Notes under the pieces: generated by a model | The model's database searches: none | What the model saw: the letters and a program-made list of their open reading frames with translations, nothing else | Told to the model about the DNA's origin: nothing | Assembly (NCBI RefSeq): GCF_004564135.1 | Contig: NZ_CP038255.1 | Coordinates: forward strand, 94,501 to 158,500 | Direction: 5' to 3' | Source of the DNA: Terasakiella sp. SH-1 | Lineage (GTDB): Bacteria; Pseudomonadota; Alphaproteobacteria; Rhodospirillales; Terasakiellaceae | Length of the DNA: 64,000 nt | Shown here: positions 14,499-27,064 of the stretch, piece after piece | Position numbering within the stretch: position 1 is the first letter of the stretch | How the letters are laid out: each line of letters starts with the position of its first letter | Position numbers and translations under genes: made by a program

Positions 14499-14644
14499 AA
14501 GGGAAAGGTCTTTGCATACGATGGAATGCATTGTGAGGCAGGGGTTTTAAAAGGATCATAAACCCGTAAGAAACCTTATTGACAGATGAACAACTGTGGG
14601 TCATATGGAATAGATATTGTGTCGTTATATCAGGAGTAACGAAA

Positions 14645-15076
14645 TTGTCTTTAGTTTGGCAAGAAAGCATGTCCGTCGGCATTTCTGTCGTTGATGATGA
14701 TCATAAAAAACTGTTGTTAATGATTGAACAGTTTCGCGGCCTTGTAGAGACGCTGAACGAAAAAGACCCTGATGAAGCCGCCATCGAATTGGATCAGGTT
14801 TTTTATCTTCTTCATGATTTCACCAAGACACATTTCCGCCGTGAGGAAATGATTATGAAGGCCCTTAAATTTCCAGATATTAAACGCCATATCATCTTGC
14901 ATCAGGAATTGATTAAGCAGTTGATGGGGGCTTATGCCAAATTCAAGGAAGAACGAAAGAAAGGGCTTTTGGATAAGCCGATCAATGAATTGGCAACTCT
15001 TTTAAATCAATGGGTTGTGAATCATATTCTGCAAGAGGATTTGCAGTTGAAGCGTATGAGAAAATTTGCATCTTGA
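14645..15076 (+). CDS. Bacteriohemerythrin
   Basis: A di-iron, O2-binding four-helix protein of about 143 residues. The metal-ligand pattern is present: VDDDHKKL, HDFTKTHFRREEMIM (H...HxxxE), IILHQELI and NHILQEDLQL. The frame is open upstream to 14579, but a TTG at 14645 with an AGGAG site 8 bases upstream yields the usual family start LSLVWQESMSVGI. Magnetotactic bacteria carry many such proteins, which are thought to serve O2 sensing or delivery; it starts a block with another hemerythrin domain in the next gene. Confidence 0.9.
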   Translation: MSLVWQESMSVGISVVDDDHKKLLLMIEQFRGLVETLNEKDPDEAAIELDQVFYLLHDFTKTHFRREEMIMKALKFPDIKRHIILHQELIKQLMGAYAKFKEERKKGLLDKPINELATLLNQWVVNHILQEDLQLKRMRKFAS

Positions 15077-15202: not shown

Positions 15203-16642
15203 ATGTTTATTGTAGCTGTTCTTAAGAACTCTGGACAAAAAAATTTCGAAGCTTTTTGGAATAAACAAGAAGCGGCTACATTTTGGTCAAATATTATTTC
15301 GAGTCGACGCAAGCTTGAAGGCGATGCTGTTCGCGAGGTGGTGCTTTATGAAAGTGAAACCTCTTCTATTGAACATGGTATCAAAGAAGCGCGTCAAAAT
15401 CGGCTTCAGCCGATCAAAACCCATAAAATGAATGAGAACGTCCCGTTTTATGAAAAGATAAAACGTACAGGACCGGGGTGTGTCACACCTGAAACCATTA
15501 TGGAAGCCGAACGCCAGATTAAGGCGGAAGGGGCCCGTTTTGTTGAAGTTACCAAAGAAACGGTTCAAAGCTTCCAGAAAAAGGTTGAAGCGCTGGCCTC
15601 TGCCAAGGAGGTCCATCCCCATCACAAGGTCGTGATGGACGAGATTTGCTATAACCTCAAGGCCCAAGGCGGGGGATATAGCTACACACTGATTACATTC
15701 GTCGCCGGCCATTTGGAAAAATACCTTAAGCGCGCCCAGGATGAAGATATGGTCAGTGAACGCGGGGTGAATATCCTGCGTGCCTATGTCACTACATTTG
15801 AATTTATCCTGAATAACCGGATCACAGGTACAGGCGGGGATTTGGGCCGCACGTTGATCAAGAAATTGGATGAAGTCATTAAAGGTGTGAACGCCGATAT
15901 TGATGTGGCCGCTGTACGTGCGGCTGCCAAGCCAAAGCCGAAACCAAAACCGCAGCCCAAACCAGAGGTCAAGCCGGAAGTCAAGCCAGAGGTCAAGCCG
16001 ACGCCAGAAGTCGCACCCACTGTCGAAAAACCGATCGAAGAAGAAATGCCTGCTGCACCTGTTCAGCCGAAGCCGGAACCTGGTGTTATTTCGCAGGAGT
16101 CTTTGGCAGAACTTTTCGAACAGAAGAAAGCCGAGCCTGAACCTGAAAATGCAGGCAAGGCCAATGAGGTCAATGAAAAGACCTTTGACTGGTCAGAGAA
16201 ATATTCGGTTGGTATTCCAGAACTGGATGAAGACCATCGTTATCTCTTCCATTTGATGAAGCACTTCTATCTCACCAGCGAACGTGATGGCGGTTTGTAT
16301 GAAGTGGATATTATTTTCTCCATCTTGAAAGCTTTTGCCCGTGTCCACTTTGGCCGCGAAGAAGCTGCCATGGCCATCGCAGGGTATGACAAGACGGTCG
16401 AACATGTGAAGCAGCATGAAAAGCTGATGGTCGAACTGGAAGAAATGCGTGACTATTATGTGATGTTGACGGATGAAGAAGCCGGTAAGAAAGTCAGTAA
16501 TATGTTTGTGAAATGGTTAAGCGGCCATATTCAGGAAGAAGATTCAGGCTATCAGAATAGTATGCAGGCAAAATCTGAAAAGATTTCCAGCTTCTTACAG
16601 GAAATGGATATGCCCAAGGCGTGGATTGGGGAAGAAGAATAA
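15203..16642 (+). CDS. Hpt-like / hemerythrin fusion protein
   Basis: The 479-residue protein has four parts. Residues 1-80 form a small alpha/beta domain shared with the gene at 17157. Residues about 95-235 are helical and contain CYNLKAQGGGYSY, which aligns with the histidine phosphotransfer (Hpt) signature but has Tyr where the phospho-His should be. Residues 240-330 are a Pro/Lys/Glu linker ending in ISQESLAELFEQ, similar to the CheY-binding EIDALL motif of FliM. Residues about 345-460 are a complete hemerythrin domain (DEDHRYLFH, HFGREEA, VKQHEKL, GHIQEED). It overlaps the next gene (a receiver domain) by one base. This suggests an O2-responsive scaffold; the function is not known. Confidence 0.75.
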   Translation: MFIVAVLKNSGQKNFEAFWNKQEAATFWSNIISSRRKLEGDAVREVVLYESETSSIEHGIKEARQNRLQPIKTHKMNENVPFYEKIKRTGPGCVTPETIMEAERQIKAEGARFVEVTKETVQSFQKKVEALASAKEVHPHHKVVMDEICYNLKAQGGGYSYTLITFVAGHLEKYLKRAQDEDMVSERGVNILRAYVTTFEFILNNRITGTGGDLGRTLIKKLDEVIKGVNADIDVAAVRAAAKPKPKPKPQPKPEVKPEVKPEVKPTPEVAPTVEKPIEEEMPAAPVQPKPEPGVISQESLAELFEQKKAEPEPENAGKANEVNEKTFDWSEKYSVGIPELDEDHRYLFHLMKHFYLTSERDGGLYEVDIIFSILKAFARVHFGREEAAMAIAGYDKTVEHVKQHEKLMVELEEMRDYYVMLTDEEAGKKVSNMFVKWLSGHIQEEDSGYQNSMQAKSEKISSFLQEMDMPKAWIGEEE

Positions 16643-17133
16643 TGAAAAAATTCCAAAGCTACGGTTTTACGGATTTAACATTTTTGATTGTCGATGTAGA
16701 CCGTTGGGCGGCGAATCTGACCGAAACCACTTTGCGGACATTCGGGGTGAAGAAATGTGTTTTTGCCACCAATGAATTCGATATGATGGAATCGCTGTTG
16801 CGTGACCGTCCAGATATCATTTTCATGGAATGGAAGCTCAAGTCAGATAGCGGTATTGATTTGGTGCGAAAGATCAGAACAGCATCTTTTGAAACCTATC
16901 AACATACGCCGATCATTATGGCAACGGCGATGACCGATATGGAAAATGTCGCAGAAGCCCGCGATGCCGGGGTCAACGAATTTATTGCGCGGCCATTTTC
17001 ACCGGGAAATCTCTATAGCCGGATTTGTGCGATGGTTGCCAATCCACGCCCCTTTGTGGATTGTTCGACCTATAAGGGGCCGGACCGCCGCCGCCGCCGG
17101 ATGCCCGTACCGATTGATCGCCGCCGCAAGTAA
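16642..17133 (+). CDS. Receiver-domain protein with Asp to Glu at the phosphosite
   Basis: A 163-residue, stand-alone CheY-like receiver. The first strand reads LIVDVD. The phosphoacceptor strand reads DIIFMEWKLKSDSG, with Glu63 where Asp is expected, and the conserved Lys is Arg (FIARPFSP). The switch Thr is kept (IIMATAM). The C-terminus carries YKGPDRRRRR and a second basic stretch DRRRK, like the arginine-rich tails of alphaproteobacterial CheY-like proteins, some of which bind c-di-GMP (Cle family). The substitution would prevent phosphorylation or mimic it. The ATG is at 16642, in a TAATG overlap with the upstream gene, so the pair is translationally coupled. Confidence 0.85.
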   Translation: MKKFQSYGFTDLTFLIVDVDRWAANLTETTLRTFGVKKCVFATNEFDMMESLLRDRPDIIFMEWKLKSDSGIDLVRKIRTASFETYQHTPIIMATAMTDMENVAEARDAGVNEFIARPFSPGNLYSRICAMVANPRPFVDCSTYKGPDRRRRRMPVPIDRRRK

Positions 17134-17156
17134 GCGTGATAAAGGGGGAGGGGAAG

Positions 17157-18107
17157 ATGCATGTTATCGCAATTTTGGCACAAGCCGGTGATGATGAGTT
17201 TCTAGCCTTTGAAAAAAAGGGCCGGGCTTCCCAATATTGGTCAAACGCGGTTGATCAGGCAAAACGCGGTGAGGCATCCGTACAGGGAAAGCGGGCTTTC
17301 AAGCTGTTTGTTATTGATGGTGATGATGAAGAAGCCGCTCTTAGCCTTGCCAGAAAGGGGGAGGTTGAGGCCGTTAAGACCTTTGATGTTGAAAACTACG
17401 TCCCCTTGTCAGAAAAGGCTGCCGCAGATGAAACCATGCTGGCGATTGATTTTAACGATATCGCTGCCGCAGAAAAAGATGTTGAAGAGCTGACGGATAC
17501 CTATCAAAGCTGGGTTAAATCCGATGTGAAACTTTTACAGGACCGGATTAATCTGATCAAAAGTACCGGCGACTTTGACGAAAACGATTACCGCACCATG
17601 CATGATATTGCCTATAACCTGACCGGGATGGGCGGGACGTTTAATTATCCGATGGTGTCATTTCTAGGGGTGCGGTTGATGTATTTCATCGAAACCCTGG
17701 AAAACAAGCCATTAACCAACGCACATCTCCAAATTCTCTCAGCCTATTTATCAGCCCTTAAAATCGTTGTGGCCAAAGGGATCAAGGGCAATGGCGGGGC
17801 GCTGGGTCGTAAGTTGCTGGATAATCTCAATAGCGTAATTCTAAAATTTTCTGGTCGGGAAAAAGCAAAAGCGAAACCAAAGCCTGAGCCAAAATCGGCG
17901 ACGAAAACCCCTCAGGTCATACAAGATATTATTCAGAGTGAAAAAAACCTTGAAGAAAATAAGGTTAAGGTAGTAAAAAATAAACCAGAAGCCGCGCAGA
18001 CCCGAAAGTCAGATGGGGTTGAGGTTGAAAAGCGGTCACAGGAAAAAACAGCGCCGAATGCTATGTCACAGGAAGAGCTTTCACGAATTCTTAACGACAA
18101 AAAGTGA
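17157..18107 (+). CDS. Hpt-like scaffold protein, paralogue without hemerythrin
   Basis: The 316-residue product is a paralogue of the N-terminal two thirds of the 15203 gene (MHVIAILAQAGDDEF against MFIVAVLKNSGQKNF, both with a YWSN/FWSN motif). The Hpt-like segment is HDIAYNLTGMGGTFNYP. It closely fits the Hpt signature but again has Tyr in place of the phosphorylatable His. A Lys/Pro-rich linker follows, and the last 14 residues are MSQEELSRILNDKK, resembling the FliM CheY-binding peptide. The ATG at 17157 has a GGGGGAGGGG site; a GTG at 17136 is less likely. It is followed 12 bases later by another receiver gene, repeating the scaffold-receiver order. Confidence 0.7.
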   Translation: MHVIAILAQAGDDEFLAFEKKGRASQYWSNAVDQAKRGEASVQGKRAFKLFVIDGDDEEAALSLARKGEVEAVKTFDVENYVPLSEKAAADETMLAIDFNDIAAAEKDVEELTDTYQSWVKSDVKLLQDRINLIKSTGDFDENDYRTMHDIAYNLTGMGGTFNYPMVSFLGVRLMYFIETLENKPLTNAHLQILSAYLSALKIVVAKGIKGNGGALGRKLLDNLNSVILKFSGREKAKAKPKPEPKSATKTPQVIQDIIQSEKNLEENKVKVVKNKPEAAQTRKSDGVEVEKRSQEKTAPNAMSQEELSRILNDKK

Positions 18108-18119
18108 TATTTTCTCTGT

Positions 18120-18704
18120 ATGAATGATGTAACTGGAAATACGCAAAATAATACGACTGGCTTAAATTTCCGCGATCTTTCTTTTTTGATTGTGGATAAG
18201 GATCGCCGCGCAGCCACGGTATTGCGCACCATTTTGCGGAACTTTTATGCCCGTGATATTGATTTTGCGCCCAGTACCATTCAGGCATATGCCCATTTAC
18301 ATGAAAAACATACAGATATCATTCTGGTTGAAAGTGATTTGGGCGGGGATGATACGGGTTTTGATCTGGTTAAGAAAATTCGAGCCTCTTCTTTTGAAGA
18401 TTACCAGCATATCCCGATTATCATGATGACGGCGGACGCCAGTGAAAAAAATGTCAGCATGGCACGTGATATTGGTGTGAATGAATTTATGGTTAAGCCG
18501 GTTTCACCAAAAGAAACCTTTGACCATATCTCATCGGTTATCACCCATCCGCGTCCCTTCATCGAAGTTGAAAACTATGCCGGCCCGGATCGCAGGCGCA
18601 AAAAGGAATTTTTTGAGCAAGAACGCCGCAAAGAGAACCTTCAAAAGCAGGCACGCGAAGAGTCTGAAACCCTTGCTGAGACTCAGGTTGAGACTCAAGG
18701 TTAA
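18120..18704 (+). CDS. Second receiver-domain protein with Asp to Glu
   Basis: A 194-residue CheY-like protein and paralogue of the 16642 gene. The first strand is FLIVDKD, the phosphosite strand DIILVESDLGGDDTG has Glu71 for Asp, the switch Thr is in IIMMTADA, and the Lys is retained (FMVKPVSP). The tail has PRPFIEVENYAGPDRRRKK, then a charged helix rich in Glu, Gln and Arg. It completes the second scaffold-receiver pair of this block. The matching Glu substitution in both paralogues argues that it is functional rather than decay. Confidence 0.85.
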   Translation: MNDVTGNTQNNTTGLNFRDLSFLIVDKDRRAATVLRTILRNFYARDIDFAPSTIQAYAHLHEKHTDIILVESDLGGDDTGFDLVKKIRASSFEDYQHIPIIMMTADASEKNVSMARDIGVNEFMVKPVSPKETFDHISSVITHPRPFIEVENYAGPDRRRKKEFFEQERRKENLQKQAREESETLAETQVETQG

Positions 18705-18808: not shown

Positions 18809-20386
18809 GTGATGAGGCTTAGAATGGCTTTGTCCAGGGTAATGCGCATGTGTAAGGATTATGGTCTGATGCCAAATGTATACCACCTACAGAATTTAGG
18901 GATGGGCTCATCGGAATGGAATGCGTGGCGTGAATCCGAAAAAGGGATGACCCCGGACCTGTCCAATGCGGAGATCAGAGCAGTTAATCTGGCTCGCATT
19001 GACCTACAGGGCGCTGTCCTGACCAAAGCCAACCTTAAACGAACCAACCTGAACGGGGCCAATCTTTCAGGCGCCAATATGGCCGGATCCAACATGGAAG
19101 GGATCAACTTGGCCGGGGCCAACCTGGAAAGGGCCAACTGTGCAGGGGCTTACTTAATGAAAGCCAACTTGTCTGGCTGTAAGTTACGCTGGACCAACCT
19201 GTCAGGGGCTGCTCTTGTGGGCAAAACCAATATGACGGGGGCGGATTTAACCGGGGCGAACCTTTGTGGGGCGCGTTTGACCGGGGTTAATTTGTCCGGT
19301 GCAAATTTAACCCGTGCGAATTTGGCAGGGGCGGATTTCCGCGATGCTGATTTGACCGGGGCAAATTTTGAAAATACCGATACCAGCGGTGCCTTTTTTG
19401 GTGGGGCCGATCTTCGTGGGACGTTATTGGAACATTCCATTGATTTATACCTGCCAGAAGAAGACGAACCAGAGGAAATGATGGAGATGGGGCCTGTGCC
19501 ACAACCGCAAGCCCAGCCCTATCCTTATCCTCAGCAGCCGCAACCTCAGCCACAGCCGCAGCCCATGCAAACGGCAACGGTTGAGCCTTTCCCGCAGCCA
19601 CAGCCCGCACCGCAGCCCATGCCGGAACCGATTATGGAACCGGAACCTGTGGTACAGGTGGCACCCGAACCCGTCATGGAACCCGTGATGGAGCCGGAAC
19701 CAATTCCTGAACCCGAGCCCGAGCCCATTCCAGAGCCTGAACCCATTGTTCAGCTTGCCCCGGAACCTGAGCCCGAGCCGGAACCTATGCCCGCACCCGC
19801 ACCAGTGCAGGAAGTGATTGAACCTGAAAAGCCAGATGATGATGCCTATCAGGTTTATGAAACAAAGGATTTTGCGATCCTGACCCTGTGCTTACCGGGC
19901 TTTAGCGAGAAAAAACATGGGGAGGAAGAGGACCTTCTCGGACTGTTGCGTCGTTATAACCAGTATTTTATGGATGGCAGTGATCAAAAAGGGGTACCTA
20001 TGGCAACCCGTGGAGATGCATTCTACGGTGCCTTTGAAAACCCTAATACGGCGATCACTTGTGCACGTGGGTATCTCAATATCCTGCGTGACATGAAAAC
20101 CGATGCCTATGTAGGCATCAACTGGGGCAATGCGACCTCAACCGGGGAAGCCGGGTCTGAAATTAAGGATTTGATTATTTCCTCAATTTCACCCATGGCG
20201 CGGCTTATGCCTGTGGCTAATCCGGGGGAAGTTTTGATTTTGGATGAATTGTTTAATCGACCGGAAATCAGAACTGAAAGGTTTGAATTCACCAAAGTAT
20301 CCCGGCGCTGGATGAAAGCCAGTGTCAAGGCAGACGGACCCACCATTGAGGTGCTCTGTTACGCTGTTAAGGAACGGGCTGAATAA
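18809..20386 (+). CDS. Pentapeptide-repeat / nucleotide-cyclase-like fusion protein
   Basis: The protein has up to 525 residues. Residues about 50-215 are pentapeptide repeats (A(N/D)LxG units such as [10 protein letters not shown]), forming a right-handed quadrilateral beta helix. Residues 220-345 are a Pro/Glu/Gln-rich linker (PEPEP, PQPQ runs). The C-terminal domain (about 350-520) resembles a class III adenylate/guanylate cyclase fold: [29 protein letters not shown], then YVGINWG and [14 protein letters not shown]. The two metal-binding Asp of active cyclases are not obvious, so it may be a degenerate, ligand-binding version. The start is uncertain: GTG 18809, ATG 18812 or ATG 18824. It ends the signalling block, before a terminator. 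Confidence 0.75.
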
Positions 20387-21033: not shown

Positions 21034-23169
21034 GTGAACACACAAACCAAGACCTTGACGGTTGCCTTGGCGGGGAACCCGAACTGTGGTAAAACGACCC
21101 TGTTGAATAAACTGACAGGCTCTCATAAAGGCGTGGGTAACTATGCCCGTGTGACAATTGACAAACAGGGCAGCAAGCTGACCCATAAAGGCTGGACGAT
21201 CAATGTGATTGATCTGCCGGGGATTTATTCTTTAAGCTCCCAGTCCCCGGAAGAAATCGTTGGCCGTGATTTTATTCAGGACGAACAGCCGGATCTCATC
21301 CTGAACGTTCTGGATGCAACAAACATTCAGCGTAGCCTGTTTTTGTCCACCCAATTGATTGAAATGGGTGTGCCGCGCATTTACGACATCAACATGATTG
21401 ATGAAGCCAATGCCAAGGATATCTCTTTTGACACCCTCGCGCTGGCTGAAATCCTCGGCAGCCCGGTGGTGGAGACAGAAGCGCGCAAAGGTTTTGGTTT
21501 TGAACTGCTGCTCGACACCATTGTTGAGATGGCGGAAAAAGGTCTGCCCAAAGACAGCATTAACATCAAATATGACAGCCACCTTGAAGAAGCCATCGTT
21601 GATGTACAGAAAATCATTTCTGACCTTCACCCTGGGGAGATGAATGAACATCAGACCCGTTGGTTGGCAATCAAGCTGATGGAAGGCGATGATGACCTGC
21701 TTAAACGTGAAGCAGAACATGCAGAACTGATTGAAGCGGTTGATGCCAAACGTGCAGAGATCGAACGCACCCATGGTGAAAGCACGGAAGTGATGTTTGC
21801 ACAAGGGCGTTACGGTTTCATCAACGGTGTTGTTCAAGAAGCGGTGACTTTGCCTGCAACGTCTGAACAATCTTCAAGCCTGACACAAAAACTGGATCAC
21901 ATCTTCTTGCATCGTTTCCTCGGCCTGCCGATTTTCCTTGGCCTGATTTGGGCCATGTTTGAAGCAACCTTTACATTGGGGACTTACCCGATGGACTGGA
22001 TTGATGGCCTGATGGGTGATTTCACCGATGTTGTTGCAGGCGCCATGAGCGAAGGCTTGCTGCGTGACCTGATGGTTGACGGTATCTTGGCCGGGGTTGG
22101 GGGCACGATCATCTTCCTGCCCAACATTGTGATCCTGTTCTTCTTTATGGCTGTGTTCAGCGAAACCGGTTATCTCGCCCGTTCTGCCTTTTTGGTGGAT
22201 CGCACCATGCATGCCTTTGGTCTGCACGGGAAAGCCATGATCCCGCTGGTGATGGGCTTTGGCTGTAACGTTCCCGCCATTATGGCGTGTCGCACGATCG
22301 AAAGCCCGCGTGCACGCCTGATCGCCATTTTGGTGAACCCGTTCATGGCTTGTACAGCGCGTCTTCCGGTTTTCGTACTGTTTGCCGGGGCCTTCTTTGC
22401 CGATGTCGCAGGGACCATGGTTTTTGCCATGTATATGCTGAGTATCGTTGTGGCCATGCTGTCGTCGATCTTCTTATCTAAATTTATTATCAAAGGGCAA
22501 AACGAGTCCTTTGTTATGGAATTGCCGCCGTTCCGCGTACCCACATTCAGCGGCATTTTCTTCCATATGTTTGAAAAGGCCATGGGCTTTATCAAGAAAG
22601 TTGGTGGTATCATCCTTGTTGGTTCGATCATCATCTGGATCTTGCAAGCCTTCCCGCAGAATGTTGAATATTCTCAGGATTTTGAAGCGAACATCGAAGC
22701 GCTTCAGGCCCAGCCGGAAACAGAGGCTCGTAACGAGCAGATTACAGCCTTGTCACGCCAGCAGACGCTGGAAACAATGGAAAAAAGCTATCTGGGTCAA
22801 ATCGGTGTAGCCGTAACCCCCGTGTTTGAGCCGCTTGGCTTTAACTGGAAAGACACCGTTGCGATCCTGACTGGCGTTGTTGCCAAAGAGGTTGTGGTTG
22901 CCACATATGCCGTGCTTTACGGTCAGGATGAGGAATCTACTGAAGAATCCGTCTCCCTTCGTGAAGCCATGACGGGCATTATGACGCCGCTTGTTGCCTT
23001 TACCTTCATGGTCTTTGCGCTTCTTTATGCGCCGTGCTTCAGCACATTGGCGGTGATCAAGCGTGAAGCCGGTGGCTGGAAATGGGTAGGCTTCTCTGTT
23101 GCCTTCTCCGTTACCGTTGCCTGGTCTTTGGCTTTCGTTATTTCGATTATCGGGAATATATTGATCTGA
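21034..23169 (+). CDS. feoB: Ferrous iron transport protein B (GTPase permease)
   Basis: A 711-residue Fe(II) transporter of the inner membrane, starting at GTG 21034. The N-terminal G domain has G1 AGNPNCGKTTLLNKL (about residue 13), G2 region NYARVTID, and G3 DLPGIYSLSS. The G4 motif reads NMIDEA, where Asn-x-x-Asp is kept as N-M-I-D. A helical guanine-dissociation-inhibitor domain follows, then two Gate repeats in the membrane part (LGFGCNVPAI-like MGFGCNVPAIMACRTIES, and KEVVVATYAVLYG), with YAPCFSTLAVIKRE near the end. It is the normal bacterial size for FeoB with fewer extra domains. A strong terminator follows directly. Confidence 0.97.
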   Translation: MNTQTKTLTVALAGNPNCGKTTLLNKLTGSHKGVGNYARVTIDKQGSKLTHKGWTINVIDLPGIYSLSSQSPEEIVGRDFIQDEQPDLILNVLDATNIQRSLFLSTQLIEMGVPRIYDINMIDEANAKDISFDTLALAEILGSPVVETEARKGFGFELLLDTIVEMAEKGLPKDSINIKYDSHLEEAIVDVQKIISDLHPGEMNEHQTRWLAIKLMEGDDDLLKREAEHAELIEAVDAKRAEIERTHGESTEVMFAQGRYGFINGVVQEAVTLPATSEQSSSLTQKLDHIFLHRFLGLPIFLGLIWAMFEATFTLGTYPMDWIDGLMGDFTDVVAGAMSEGLLRDLMVDGILAGVGGTIIFLPNIVILFFFMAVFSETGYLARSAFLVDRTMHAFGLHGKAMIPLVMGFGCNVPAIMACRTIESPRARLIAILVNPFMACTARLPVFVLFAGAFFADVAGTMVFAMYMLSIVVAMLSSIFLSKFIIKGQNESFVMELPPFRVPTFSGIFFHMFEKAMGFIKKVGGIILVGSIIIWILQAFPQNVEYSQDFEANIEALQAQPETEARNEQITALSRQQTLETMEKSYLGQIGVAVTPVFEPLGFNWKDTVAILTGVVAKEVVVATYAVLYGQDEESTEESVSLREAMTGIMTPLVAFTFMVFALLYAPCFSTLAVIKREAGGWKWVGFSVAFSVTVAWSLAFVISIIGNILI

Positions 23170-26510: not shown

Positions 26511-26930
26511 TTATTCACTTTTCGCACTGTTTTGAAGGACATCACGAATTTTCATATCCTCTTCCATAATGTGGTGCAAAATCCATTCTTTTAAATAAGC
26601 GGTGAGCTTATTGGCAAAAGGTTCCAGATCCTCTTCATCCAGTAAAAGATATTCATCCATCAGCTCTTCAATTTTTACAAGGAAGGTGCGATGCTCTTTA
26701 ATATGAAGGGCAAATTCAGGATAGCCTGCCTGATGCATGGTTTTTTCTTCAAAAGAAAAATGTTCCTGCGTGTAATCAGACAGATTATTCAGTGTGTCTG
26801 TAATTTCTTGCGTACTGAGCTTTTGCGAAAGATGGTCGTGAAGCGTATTAATCCACCCACAAAGTTGCCGATGTTGTTCATCAATGACTTGTACGCCCAG
26901 TAGATATTCGTCTGTGAGTTGAATAAACAC
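26511..26930 (-). CDS. Bacteriohemerythrin
   Basis: About 139 residues starting VFIQLTDEYLLGVQ. The complete di-iron ligand set is visible: VIDEQHRQL, EHFSFEEKTM, ALHIKEHRTF and HHIMEEDMKI. A GTG at 26930 preceded by GAGG is preferred to the TTG four codons upstream. With 14645 and the fusion at 15203 this is the third hemerythrin domain in 12 kb, close to the magnetosome cluster; it probably binds or senses O2 in a microaerophile. Confidence 0.88.
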   Translation of the reverse strand: MFIQLTDEYLLGVQVIDEQHRQLCGWINTLHDHLSQKLSTQEITDTLNNLSDYTQEHFSFEEKTMHQAGYPEFALHIKEHRTFLVKIEELMDEYLLLDEEDLEPFANKLTAYLKEWILHHIMEEDMKIRDVLQNSAKSE

Positions 26931-27064
26931 CTTATACCTCAATGGGTTGTGATCATCTGTGAGGGTAGAATAGGCAGTCTGTTTTGTTTAAGTCAAGTCT
27001 GGCTATCAAAGGTTGGGCAAGCTATTGTAAGGGGGCATTGAGATGAAATGGGAAAGAATTTAAG

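What the first reader, a model, noticed from the sequence alone, without database searches (positions are those of the whole stretch)
15203..18704. Duplicated pseudo-phosphorelay: Hpt His to Tyr paired with receiver Asp to Glu
Two tandem scaffold-receiver pairs occur. Both scaffolds carry a good Hpt signature (CYNLKAQGGGYSY and AYNLTGMGGTFNY), but the phospho-His position is Tyr. Both receivers carry Glu at the phospho-Asp position (FMEWKL and LVESDL). The matching substitution in both partners of both pairs suggests selection rather than decay: a binding interaction that has lost phosphotransfer, or one where Glu mimics the phosphorylated state. One scaffold is fused to an O2-binding hemerythrin domain, so O2 may act through this domain. 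I know of no described system of this form.
Basis: partly seen in the sequence, partly recalled or inferred. Interest (0 to 1): 0.75.

Follow-up and report, generated by a model that had tools for sequence, protein, structure and literature searches.

The report
Paired signalling proteins without phosphate sites
An alphaproteobacterium carries five copies of a two-gene signalling module that looks like a phosphate relay but has lost the phosphate-carrying residue in both partners (His to Tyr, Asp to Glu) and kept everything else; the receiver half resembles a known family controlled by c-di-GMP instead of phosphate, so the pair probably works as a binding switch, in some copies linked to an O2-binding domain.

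Summary
Both window pairs have Tyr (Y150, Y153) at the Hpt phospho-His position and Glu (E63, E71) at the receiver phospho-Asp. The genome has five such pairs; all 13 pairs of this architecture found, in four genera, are Tyr/Glu. His-type relatives sit beside Asp receivers (48 His/Asp, 0 Tyr/Asp). AlphaFold2 puts both Tyr in helix B of an Hpt-like bundle. Every Glu receiver has also lost the second Mg-binding acid, so phosphotransfer is very probably dead, under purifying selection. The two window pairs are paralogues, so their match is one inherited event. [quoted passage not shown] Caulobacter CleD has Glu at this site. All ten scaffolds of this genus carry a segment resembling FliM's CheY-binding motif; five carry hemerythrin domains with all iron ligands. 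Best reading (inferred, no complex tested): a phosphorylation-independent docking switch in which c-di-GMP, and in some copies O2 or NO, sets how much receiver is held or freed. A second Tyr/Glu lineage without the N-domain exists. New variant of a known kind.

The parts
14579..15076 (+). free-standing bacteriohemerythrin, 126 nt upstream of scaffold 1; neighbour, conserved in the sister species
   Evidence: TIGR02481 E 5e-25; same place and 85% identical in G001
15203..16642 (+). scaffold 1 (479 aa): N-domain, pseudo-Hpt (Tyr150), Pro-rich linker with FliM-like segment, hemerythrin
15203..15472 (+). N-terminal alpha/beta domain of scaffold 1 (aa 1-90), no Pfam match; marks the family
15482..15892 (+). 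pseudo-Hpt domain of scaffold 1 (aa 94-230)
15650..15652 (+). Tyr150 at the phospho-His position
16088..16117 (+). FliM-like segment ISQESLAELF (aa 296-305)
   Evidence: 10/10 scaffolds of the genus; E. coli FliM SILSQAEIDALLNG; own FliM VLNQDEIDSLLG
16184..16558 (+). hemerythrin domain of scaffold 1 (aa 328-452), all iron ligands present
   Evidence: TIGR02481 E 2e-25; ligand alignment
16642..17133 (+). receiver 1 (163 aa), Cle-type pseudo-receiver
   Evidence: Response_reg E 2e-17; ARR tail and alpha4 Arg
16693..16701 (+). D18-V19-D20 of receiver 1: second Mg-binding acid lost, acid one residue further on
16828..16830 (+). Glu63 at the phospho-Asp position
17071..17130 (+). arginine-rich tail YKGPDRRRRRMPVPIDRRRK (Cle ARR-like) of receiver 1
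   Evidence: motif as in PMC5677366
17157..18107 (+). scaffold 2 (316 aa): N-domain, pseudo-Hpt (Tyr153), linker, C-terminal FliM-like segment; no hemerythrin
17445..17858 (+). pseudo-Hpt domain of scaffold 2 (aa 97-234)
17613..17615 (+). Tyr153 at the phospho-His position
18063..18092 (+). FliM-like segment MSQEELSRIL (aa 303-312), near the C-terminus
18120..18704 (+). receiver 2 (194 aa), Cle-type pseudo-receiver
   Evidence: Response_reg E 2e-16; ARR tail
18195..18203 (+). D26-K27-D28 of receiver 2: second Mg-binding acid lost
18330..18332 (+). Glu71 at the phospho-Asp position
18576..18647 (+). arginine-rich tail YAGPDRRRKKEFFEQERRKENLQK of receiver 2

Best explanation
Each pair is a phosphorylation-independent docking switch derived from a receiver-Hpt phosphorelay. 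Shown: the Hpt and receiver folds are kept, the phospho-His is Tyr, the phospho-Asp is Glu, the second Mg acid of the receiver is gone, the pair is duplicated and retained as a unit, and the receiver carries the tail signature of Cle (CheY-like c-di-GMP effector) proteins. Inferred: control of the receiver has passed from phosphate to c-di-GMP, so the two phospho-residues became part of a fixed Tyr-Glu docking face; the scaffold holds its cognate receiver through that face and through its FliM-like segment, which would occupy the surface that CheY-type receivers offer to the flagellar switch; the hemerythrin domain of some scaffolds (O2, NO or redox state) changes how tightly the receiver is held. 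Release or capture of the receiver would then adjust flagellar motor behaviour or the motile-sessile choice.
For: Five Tyr/Glu pairs in the genome, 13/13 pairs of this architecture in four genera. His-type relatives beside Asp receivers: 48 His/Asp, 4 His/other, 0 Tyr/Asp. Second Mg acid lost in 13/13 Glu receivers, kept in 63/66 Asp-set receivers; Thr/Ser and Lys/Arg of the switch kept. Tyr is the only invariant column of the Tyr group that differs from the His group; Glu and the shifted acid are among 18 of 163 invariant receiver columns. Scaffold and receiver trees agree (mirror-tree r 0.81, Mantel p 0.0002). dN/dS 0.05-0.13 between species, dS saturated. First ARR motif 13/13, alpha4 Arg 13/13. 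Cle proteins are activated by c-di-GMP and not by phosphorylation, bind the flagellar switch whose FliM motif is LSQxEIDxLL, and CleD has Glu70 at the acceptor site (PMC5677366). FliM-like segment 10/10 in this genus' scaffolds, 0/80 in His-type Hpt tails. Hemerythrin ligands intact 5/5. 37 GGDEF domains in the genome. Precedent for Tyr-for-His with receiver docking kept: DivL.
Against: No complex was predicted or measured, so docking of scaffold on cognate receiver is inference. The second ARR repeat is degenerate in all 13 Glu receivers (strict second motif 0/13 against 49/66), so c-di-GMP binding is uncertain. The FliM-like segment lacks the exact EID core. Two of the five scaffolds in the genome have no hemerythrin, so O2 is not a general input. 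No flagellar or chemotaxis genes flank the window pairs. The three Tyr/Glu pairs outside the genus have no FliM-like segment on the scaffold; a similar motif lies on their receiver tails.
Confidence: 0.5

Rival explanations
1. Constitutive phosphomimic: Glu (with a basic residue replacing the second acid in several copies) locks the receiver in an active CheY-like shape, and the scaffold is a permanent anti-activator; c-di-GMP plays no part.
For: Glu 13/13; second acid replaced by Lys or Arg in eight of 13 and by Val in two; Thr and Lys of the switch kept. From own knowledge, CheY D13K is constitutively active and NtrC D54E mimics phosphate.
Against: The ARR tail is kept in 13/13, which argues for a nucleotide input; from own knowledge CheY D57E alone is not active; three members have Gly or Asn at the second acid.
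Confidence: 0.2
2. Decoy Hpt: the Tyr scaffolds compete with authentic Hpt or CheA P1 domains for Asp receivers, as plant AHP6 (His to Asn) competes with true HPts, and the adjacent Glu receivers are only a buffer.
For: AHP6 precedent (PMC7402358); the same genome keeps a His-type REC-Hpt fusion and a His-type Hpt-REC protein.
Against: Every N-domain Tyr scaffold lies directly beside a Glu receiver with a matching tree, which a decoy for other receivers does not need.
Confidence: 0.15
3. Decaying paralogues: the pairs are duplicated relics that lost phosphotransfer by drift.
For: Loss of both sites; one scaffold copy in the sister species (G001, group D) is broken between N-domain and Hpt.
Against: Tyr and Glu fixed across 25%-identical members, dN/dS 0.05-0.13, hemerythrin ligands and FliM-like segment kept.
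Confidence: 0.05
4. Changed chemistry: Tyr is phosphorylated by a tyrosine kinase, or the Glu/shifted-Asp site binds a metal or ligand, so the pair still carries a covalent or metal signal.
For: Tyr and the shifted acid are both invariant in the 13 pairs; the one Phe partner lies beside a receiver with Asn at that place.
Against: No kinase gene next to the pairs; a single Phe case; nothing tested.
Confidence: 0.08

Closest known systems
[quoted passage not shown] PMC5677366)
   Same: CheY-like receiver; [YF]xGP[DE]RR arginine-rich tail; alpha4 Arg; Glu at the acceptor site as in CleD (E70); loss of dependence on phosphorylation
   Different: second tail repeat is degenerate here; the second Mg acid is lost; each is locked in a gene pair with a pseudo-Hpt scaffold, a partner the Cle paper does not mention
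DivL, Tyr-for-His pseudo-kinase that binds the receiver DivK (PMC4211667)
   Same: Tyr at the phospho-His site, receiver docking face kept, no phosphotransfer
   Different: DivL is a histidine-kinase-type protein and its partner DivK is phosphorylated; here the scaffold has an Hpt-type fold and the partner very probably cannot be phosphorylated
Plant pseudo-HPt AHP6 and pseudo-response regulators (PMC7402358, PMC10743665)
   Same: His lost in the HPt; N-terminal acid changed and central Asp to Glu in the pseudo-receivers
   Different: His to Asn rather than Tyr; not a gene pair; no dedicated pseudo-HPt/pseudo-receiver partnership described in the papers read
CheA3 P1:CheY6 of Rhodobacter sphaeroides (PDB 3kyj, 3kyi) and Hpt domains
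   Same: best structural matches of the scaffold's helical bundle, and a CheY-type receiver is the partner
   Different: true phospho-His and phospho-Asp
FliM N-terminal CheY-binding motif LSQxEIDxLL
   Same: SQ and the hydrophobic spacing in the scaffold linker or tail
   Different: EID core not kept; sits on a scaffold, not on the motor

Membership tests
Hpt domain (PF01627) | four-helix bundle with the active-site residue in helix B | tested here: met
   AlphaFold2 pLDDT above 90 in the bundle; Tyr150/153 in helices 139-158/142-158; Foldseek best hits CheA P1 and Hpt domains, weak E-values
Hpt domain (PF01627) | match to the curated profile | tested here: not met
   no match for the window scaffolds, sub-threshold for L050 (E 0.1); relatives with His match above cut-off. 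Homology rests on these relatives
Hpt domain (PF01627) | phosphorylatable His | tested here: not met
   Tyr in 13/13; no other invariant His in the domain
phospho-accepting receiver | acidic pair, phospho-Asp, Thr/Ser and Lys | tested here: not met
   Asp to Glu and second acid lost 13/13; Thr/Ser kept 13/13; Lys 11/13, Arg 2/13
Cle (CheY-like c-di-GMP effector) | CheY-like receiver with C-terminal arginine-rich region, motif [YF]xGP[DE][RK]R | tested here: met
   first motif 13/13; motif definition PMC5677366
Cle (CheY-like c-di-GMP effector) | tandem second copy of the motif | tested here: inconclusive
   a second RR within 22 residues in 13/13, but the full second motif in 0/13 (49/66 in the Asp set)
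Cle (CheY-like c-di-GMP effector) | conserved Arg in helix alpha4 | tested here: met
   AR[DE]xG 13/13; taken to be the alpha4 Arg by its place before beta5
Cle (CheY-like c-di-GMP effector) | binds c-di-GMP and the flagellar switch | not testable with these tools
   needs binding assays
bacteriohemerythrin | H, HxxxE, HxxxH, HxxxxD iron ligands | tested here: met
   all present in 5/5 fused domains and in the upstream free protein
FliM-type CheY-binding peptide | LSQxEIDxLL | tested here: inconclusive
   SQExLxx[LIM][LF] in 10/10; SQ and hydrophobic spacing kept, EID not
DivL-like pseudo-kinase | histidine-kinase DHp and CA domains | tested here: not met
   no such domain found

The most novel reading that the evidence does not exclude
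A branch of two-component signalling in alphaproteobacteria (Cle-type receiver plus Hpt-fold partner) has exchanged phosphate for c-di-GMP: the old phospho-His/phospho-Asp pair has become a fixed aromatic-Glu docking lock (Glu always with Tyr or Phe), the scaffold carries a FliM look-alike that competes with the flagellar switch for the receiver, and hemerythrin-bearing copies let O2 or NO decide how much receiver is free.
Probability: 0.3. Interest if true: 0.82.

Novelty: new variant of a known kind. Interest (0 to 1): 0.62.

Why it matters
It would show both halves of a phosphorelay losing their chemistry together while partnership, gene pairing and fold are kept for a long time and multiplied to five copies in one cell. 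That makes testable how phosphate signalling turns into second-messenger signalling, and what a receiver-Hpt interface is worth without phosphate. It would also give Cle-type receivers, so far known as free proteins, dedicated partners, some with an O2-type sensor.

Tried and rejected
Pfam/NCBIfam alone could not call the Hpt domain; solved by His-type relatives and folding. PDB sequence search with the scaffold profile gave only coiled-coil noise. A first genome-contig scan with the scaffold found nothing (own and near genomes may be left out there); the second, on a mixed Tyr/His alignment, worked. Scaffold-receiver complex: the two genes of pair 2 share a frame and can be read through the TGA as one chain, but the mixed alignment misplaced the Hpt rows onto the receiver and the tool reports no inter-domain confidence, so the second folding job went to scaffold 1. 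N-domain: no family match, no clear fold. Strict FliM-motif scan of the genome: no hit. Decay rejected. 'Tyr segment is not the Hpt helix' rejected. Promoter/terminator scan no better than shuffles.
Full report
OBSERVATION. Scaffold 1 (15203-16642) has an N-terminal alpha/beta domain, an Hpt-like bundle with Tyr150, a Pro-rich linker and a hemerythrin domain; its stop overlaps the start of receiver 1 (16642-17133, Glu63). Scaffold 2 (17157-18107, Tyr153, no hemerythrin) is followed after 12 nt by receiver 2 (18120-18704, Glu71). Pfam sees the receivers and the hemerythrin domain but not the Hpt part.

IS IT AN HPT? Yes by descent. The same genome holds a fused REC-Hpt protein with Asp and His (L005: LLAHELRGQGGTFGYP) and an Hpt-REC protein with His (L007), both found by the scaffold search. 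Free His-type relatives across the order pass Pfam Hpt. The Tyr stands in the His column in all alignments. AlphaFold2 (66 sequences) gives a four-helix bundle at pLDDT above 90 in both scaffolds, Tyr inside helix B, and Foldseek's best solved matches are CheA P1 (3kyj, 3kyi, 8c5v, 1i5n), the Shewanella Hpt 3myf and others. The E-values are weak (0.06-0.2), the probabilities near 1.

HOW MANY. The genome has five pairs, a sister species five (one scaffold broken), and one each occurs in G060, G192 and Caenispirillum bisanense (G194, whose contig length equals that of NZ_OCNJ01000001.1). The N-domain marks this family: 5 of 317 genomes of the order; in a sample of 385 of the class only the window's own genome matched. 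That makes 13 distinct pairs, all Tyr/Glu. Of neighbouring pairs from the order, 48 are His/Asp, 4 His with another residue, 1 Tyr/Thr (L102, no N-domain), 0 Tyr/Asp (Fisher p 3e-12, but the rows are related and the Tyr/Glu cell includes two cut duplicates, so the p-value is only descriptive).

A WIDER LOOK. Receivers of this kind are common in Alphaproteobacteria (156 of 289 genomes). In sampled loci the partner's His is also replaced by Met, Leu, Arg or Asp beside receivers that keep Asp (12 cases), while every Glu receiver with a partner has Tyr (24 rows, 23 distinct loci, 22 of them in one genus) or Phe (1); one Glu receiver has no partner. So Glu goes with an aromatic residue and, in these samples, never with His. 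This second lineage has the order receiver-Hpt and no N-domain. All Glu receivers with partners may be one old clade (support 59/81, residue columns not removed), so independent origins are not shown. One origin for the 13 N-domain scaffolds is not rejected (AU p 0.38).

CONSTRAINT. Tyr is one of 5 of 134 invariant Hpt columns and the only one that differs from the His group; Glu is one of 18 of 163 invariant receiver columns. In all 13 receivers the second Mg-binding acid is Val, Lys, Arg, Gly or Asn (Asp in 63 of 66 others), and the residue after it is an invariant Asp where the others have mostly Asn; 'DGD' recurs in the second Tyr lineage, and the Phe partner sits beside 'DPN'. Phosphorylation by the normal route is thus very unlikely. 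dN/dS is 0.05-0.13 against 0.04-0.11 for neighbouring genes, with saturated dS. Receiver and scaffold trees match (r 0.81, Mantel p 0.0002).

WHAT THE RECEIVERS ARE. All 13 end in [YF]xGP[DE]RR plus a further RR and have Arg in alpha4. This is the signature of Cle proteins, CheY-like receivers that bind c-di-GMP through this tail, act on the flagellar switch, and do not need their acceptor residue; CleD has Glu70 there (PMC5677366). The test is fair for the Glu receivers, which were chosen by position beside scaffolds, but not for the Asp set, which was filtered on the motif. The second repeat is degenerate in all 13. The genome has 37 GGDEF domains, so c-di-GMP is likely in use.

THE FLIM-LIKE SEGMENT. 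All ten scaffolds of the genus carry SQExLxx[LIM][LF] after the linker; E. coli FliM begins MGDSILSQAEIDALLNG and the own FliM has VLNQDEIDSLLG. No His-type Hpt tail has it (0/80), but 22 of 66 related receivers end in such a motif, e.g. LSQDEINALLNG, as do in weaker form the receivers of the three Tyr/Glu pairs outside the genus. The segment seems to lie on one or the other partner.

HEMERYTHRIN. Five fused domains (three in this genome, two in the sister species) and the free protein upstream keep all iron ligands.

MECHANISM. Shown: fold kept, phospho-sites replaced, pairing and purifying selection, Cle signature, FliM-like segment, intact hemerythrin ligands. Inferred: c-di-GMP took over from phosphate; Tyr-Glu became a docking lock; the FliM-like segment holds or shields the receiver; hemerythrin state tunes it. 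Known precedents: DivL (Tyr for His, docking kept), AHP6 and plant pseudo-receivers with the same kind of receiver changes. No description of the combined module turned up in ten searches of an open-access library, which is not proof of absence.

ORGANISM. Unnamed; its order includes Magnetovibrio (identical Hpt rows L079 and L025/G025), so Rhodospirillales in the broad sense.

Noticed in passing
L062:2787-3365, L079:2716-3276, L105:457-1038 and others: A third (22/66) of the related receivers end in a near-perfect FliM CheY-binding motif (e.g. LSQDEINALLNG), i.e. a receiver carrying its own target peptide at its C-terminus.
   Followed up: partly
L168, L169, L162, L202, L176, L179, L180, L189, L186, L222: Hpt-fold partners of tail-bearing receivers with Leu, Met, Arg or Asp at the phospho-His position while the receiver keeps Asp: loss of the Hpt His looks recurrent in Alphaproteobacteria.
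   Followed up: partly
L184/L224-L245 (one genus), L246, L208: Second Tyr/Glu (once Phe/Glu) lineage without the N-domain and with the gene order receiver-Hpt.
   Followed up: partly
L102:2855-3902: Tyr Hpt beside a receiver with Thr at the Asp site and Ile for the switch Lys: probably a separate loss.
   Followed up: no
L041:2814-3934 (G001 C2): Sister-species copy of the group D scaffold has its N-domain and Hpt part in different open frames (stop inside); the receiver is intact.
   Followed up: no
window 18809-20386: Downstream gene: pentapeptide repeats plus a C-terminal part that looks like a class III cyclase domain; synteny kept in G001.
   Followed up: no
window 26514-26942 (-) and 21034-23169 (+): Another hemerythrin-like ORF and a FeoB-like gene lie nearby: iron and O2 genes seem to cluster here (read by eye, not searched).
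   Followed up: no
L151:7737-9677: In G060 the Tyr/Glu pair lies downstream, same strand, of a chemoreceptor-like protein with a CheW-like end (read by eye).
   Followed up: no
L107:4080-5036: Receiver-like protein with Asn at the Asp site, the tail motif and a long extra C-terminal part, beside a His-type Hpt.
   Followed up: no
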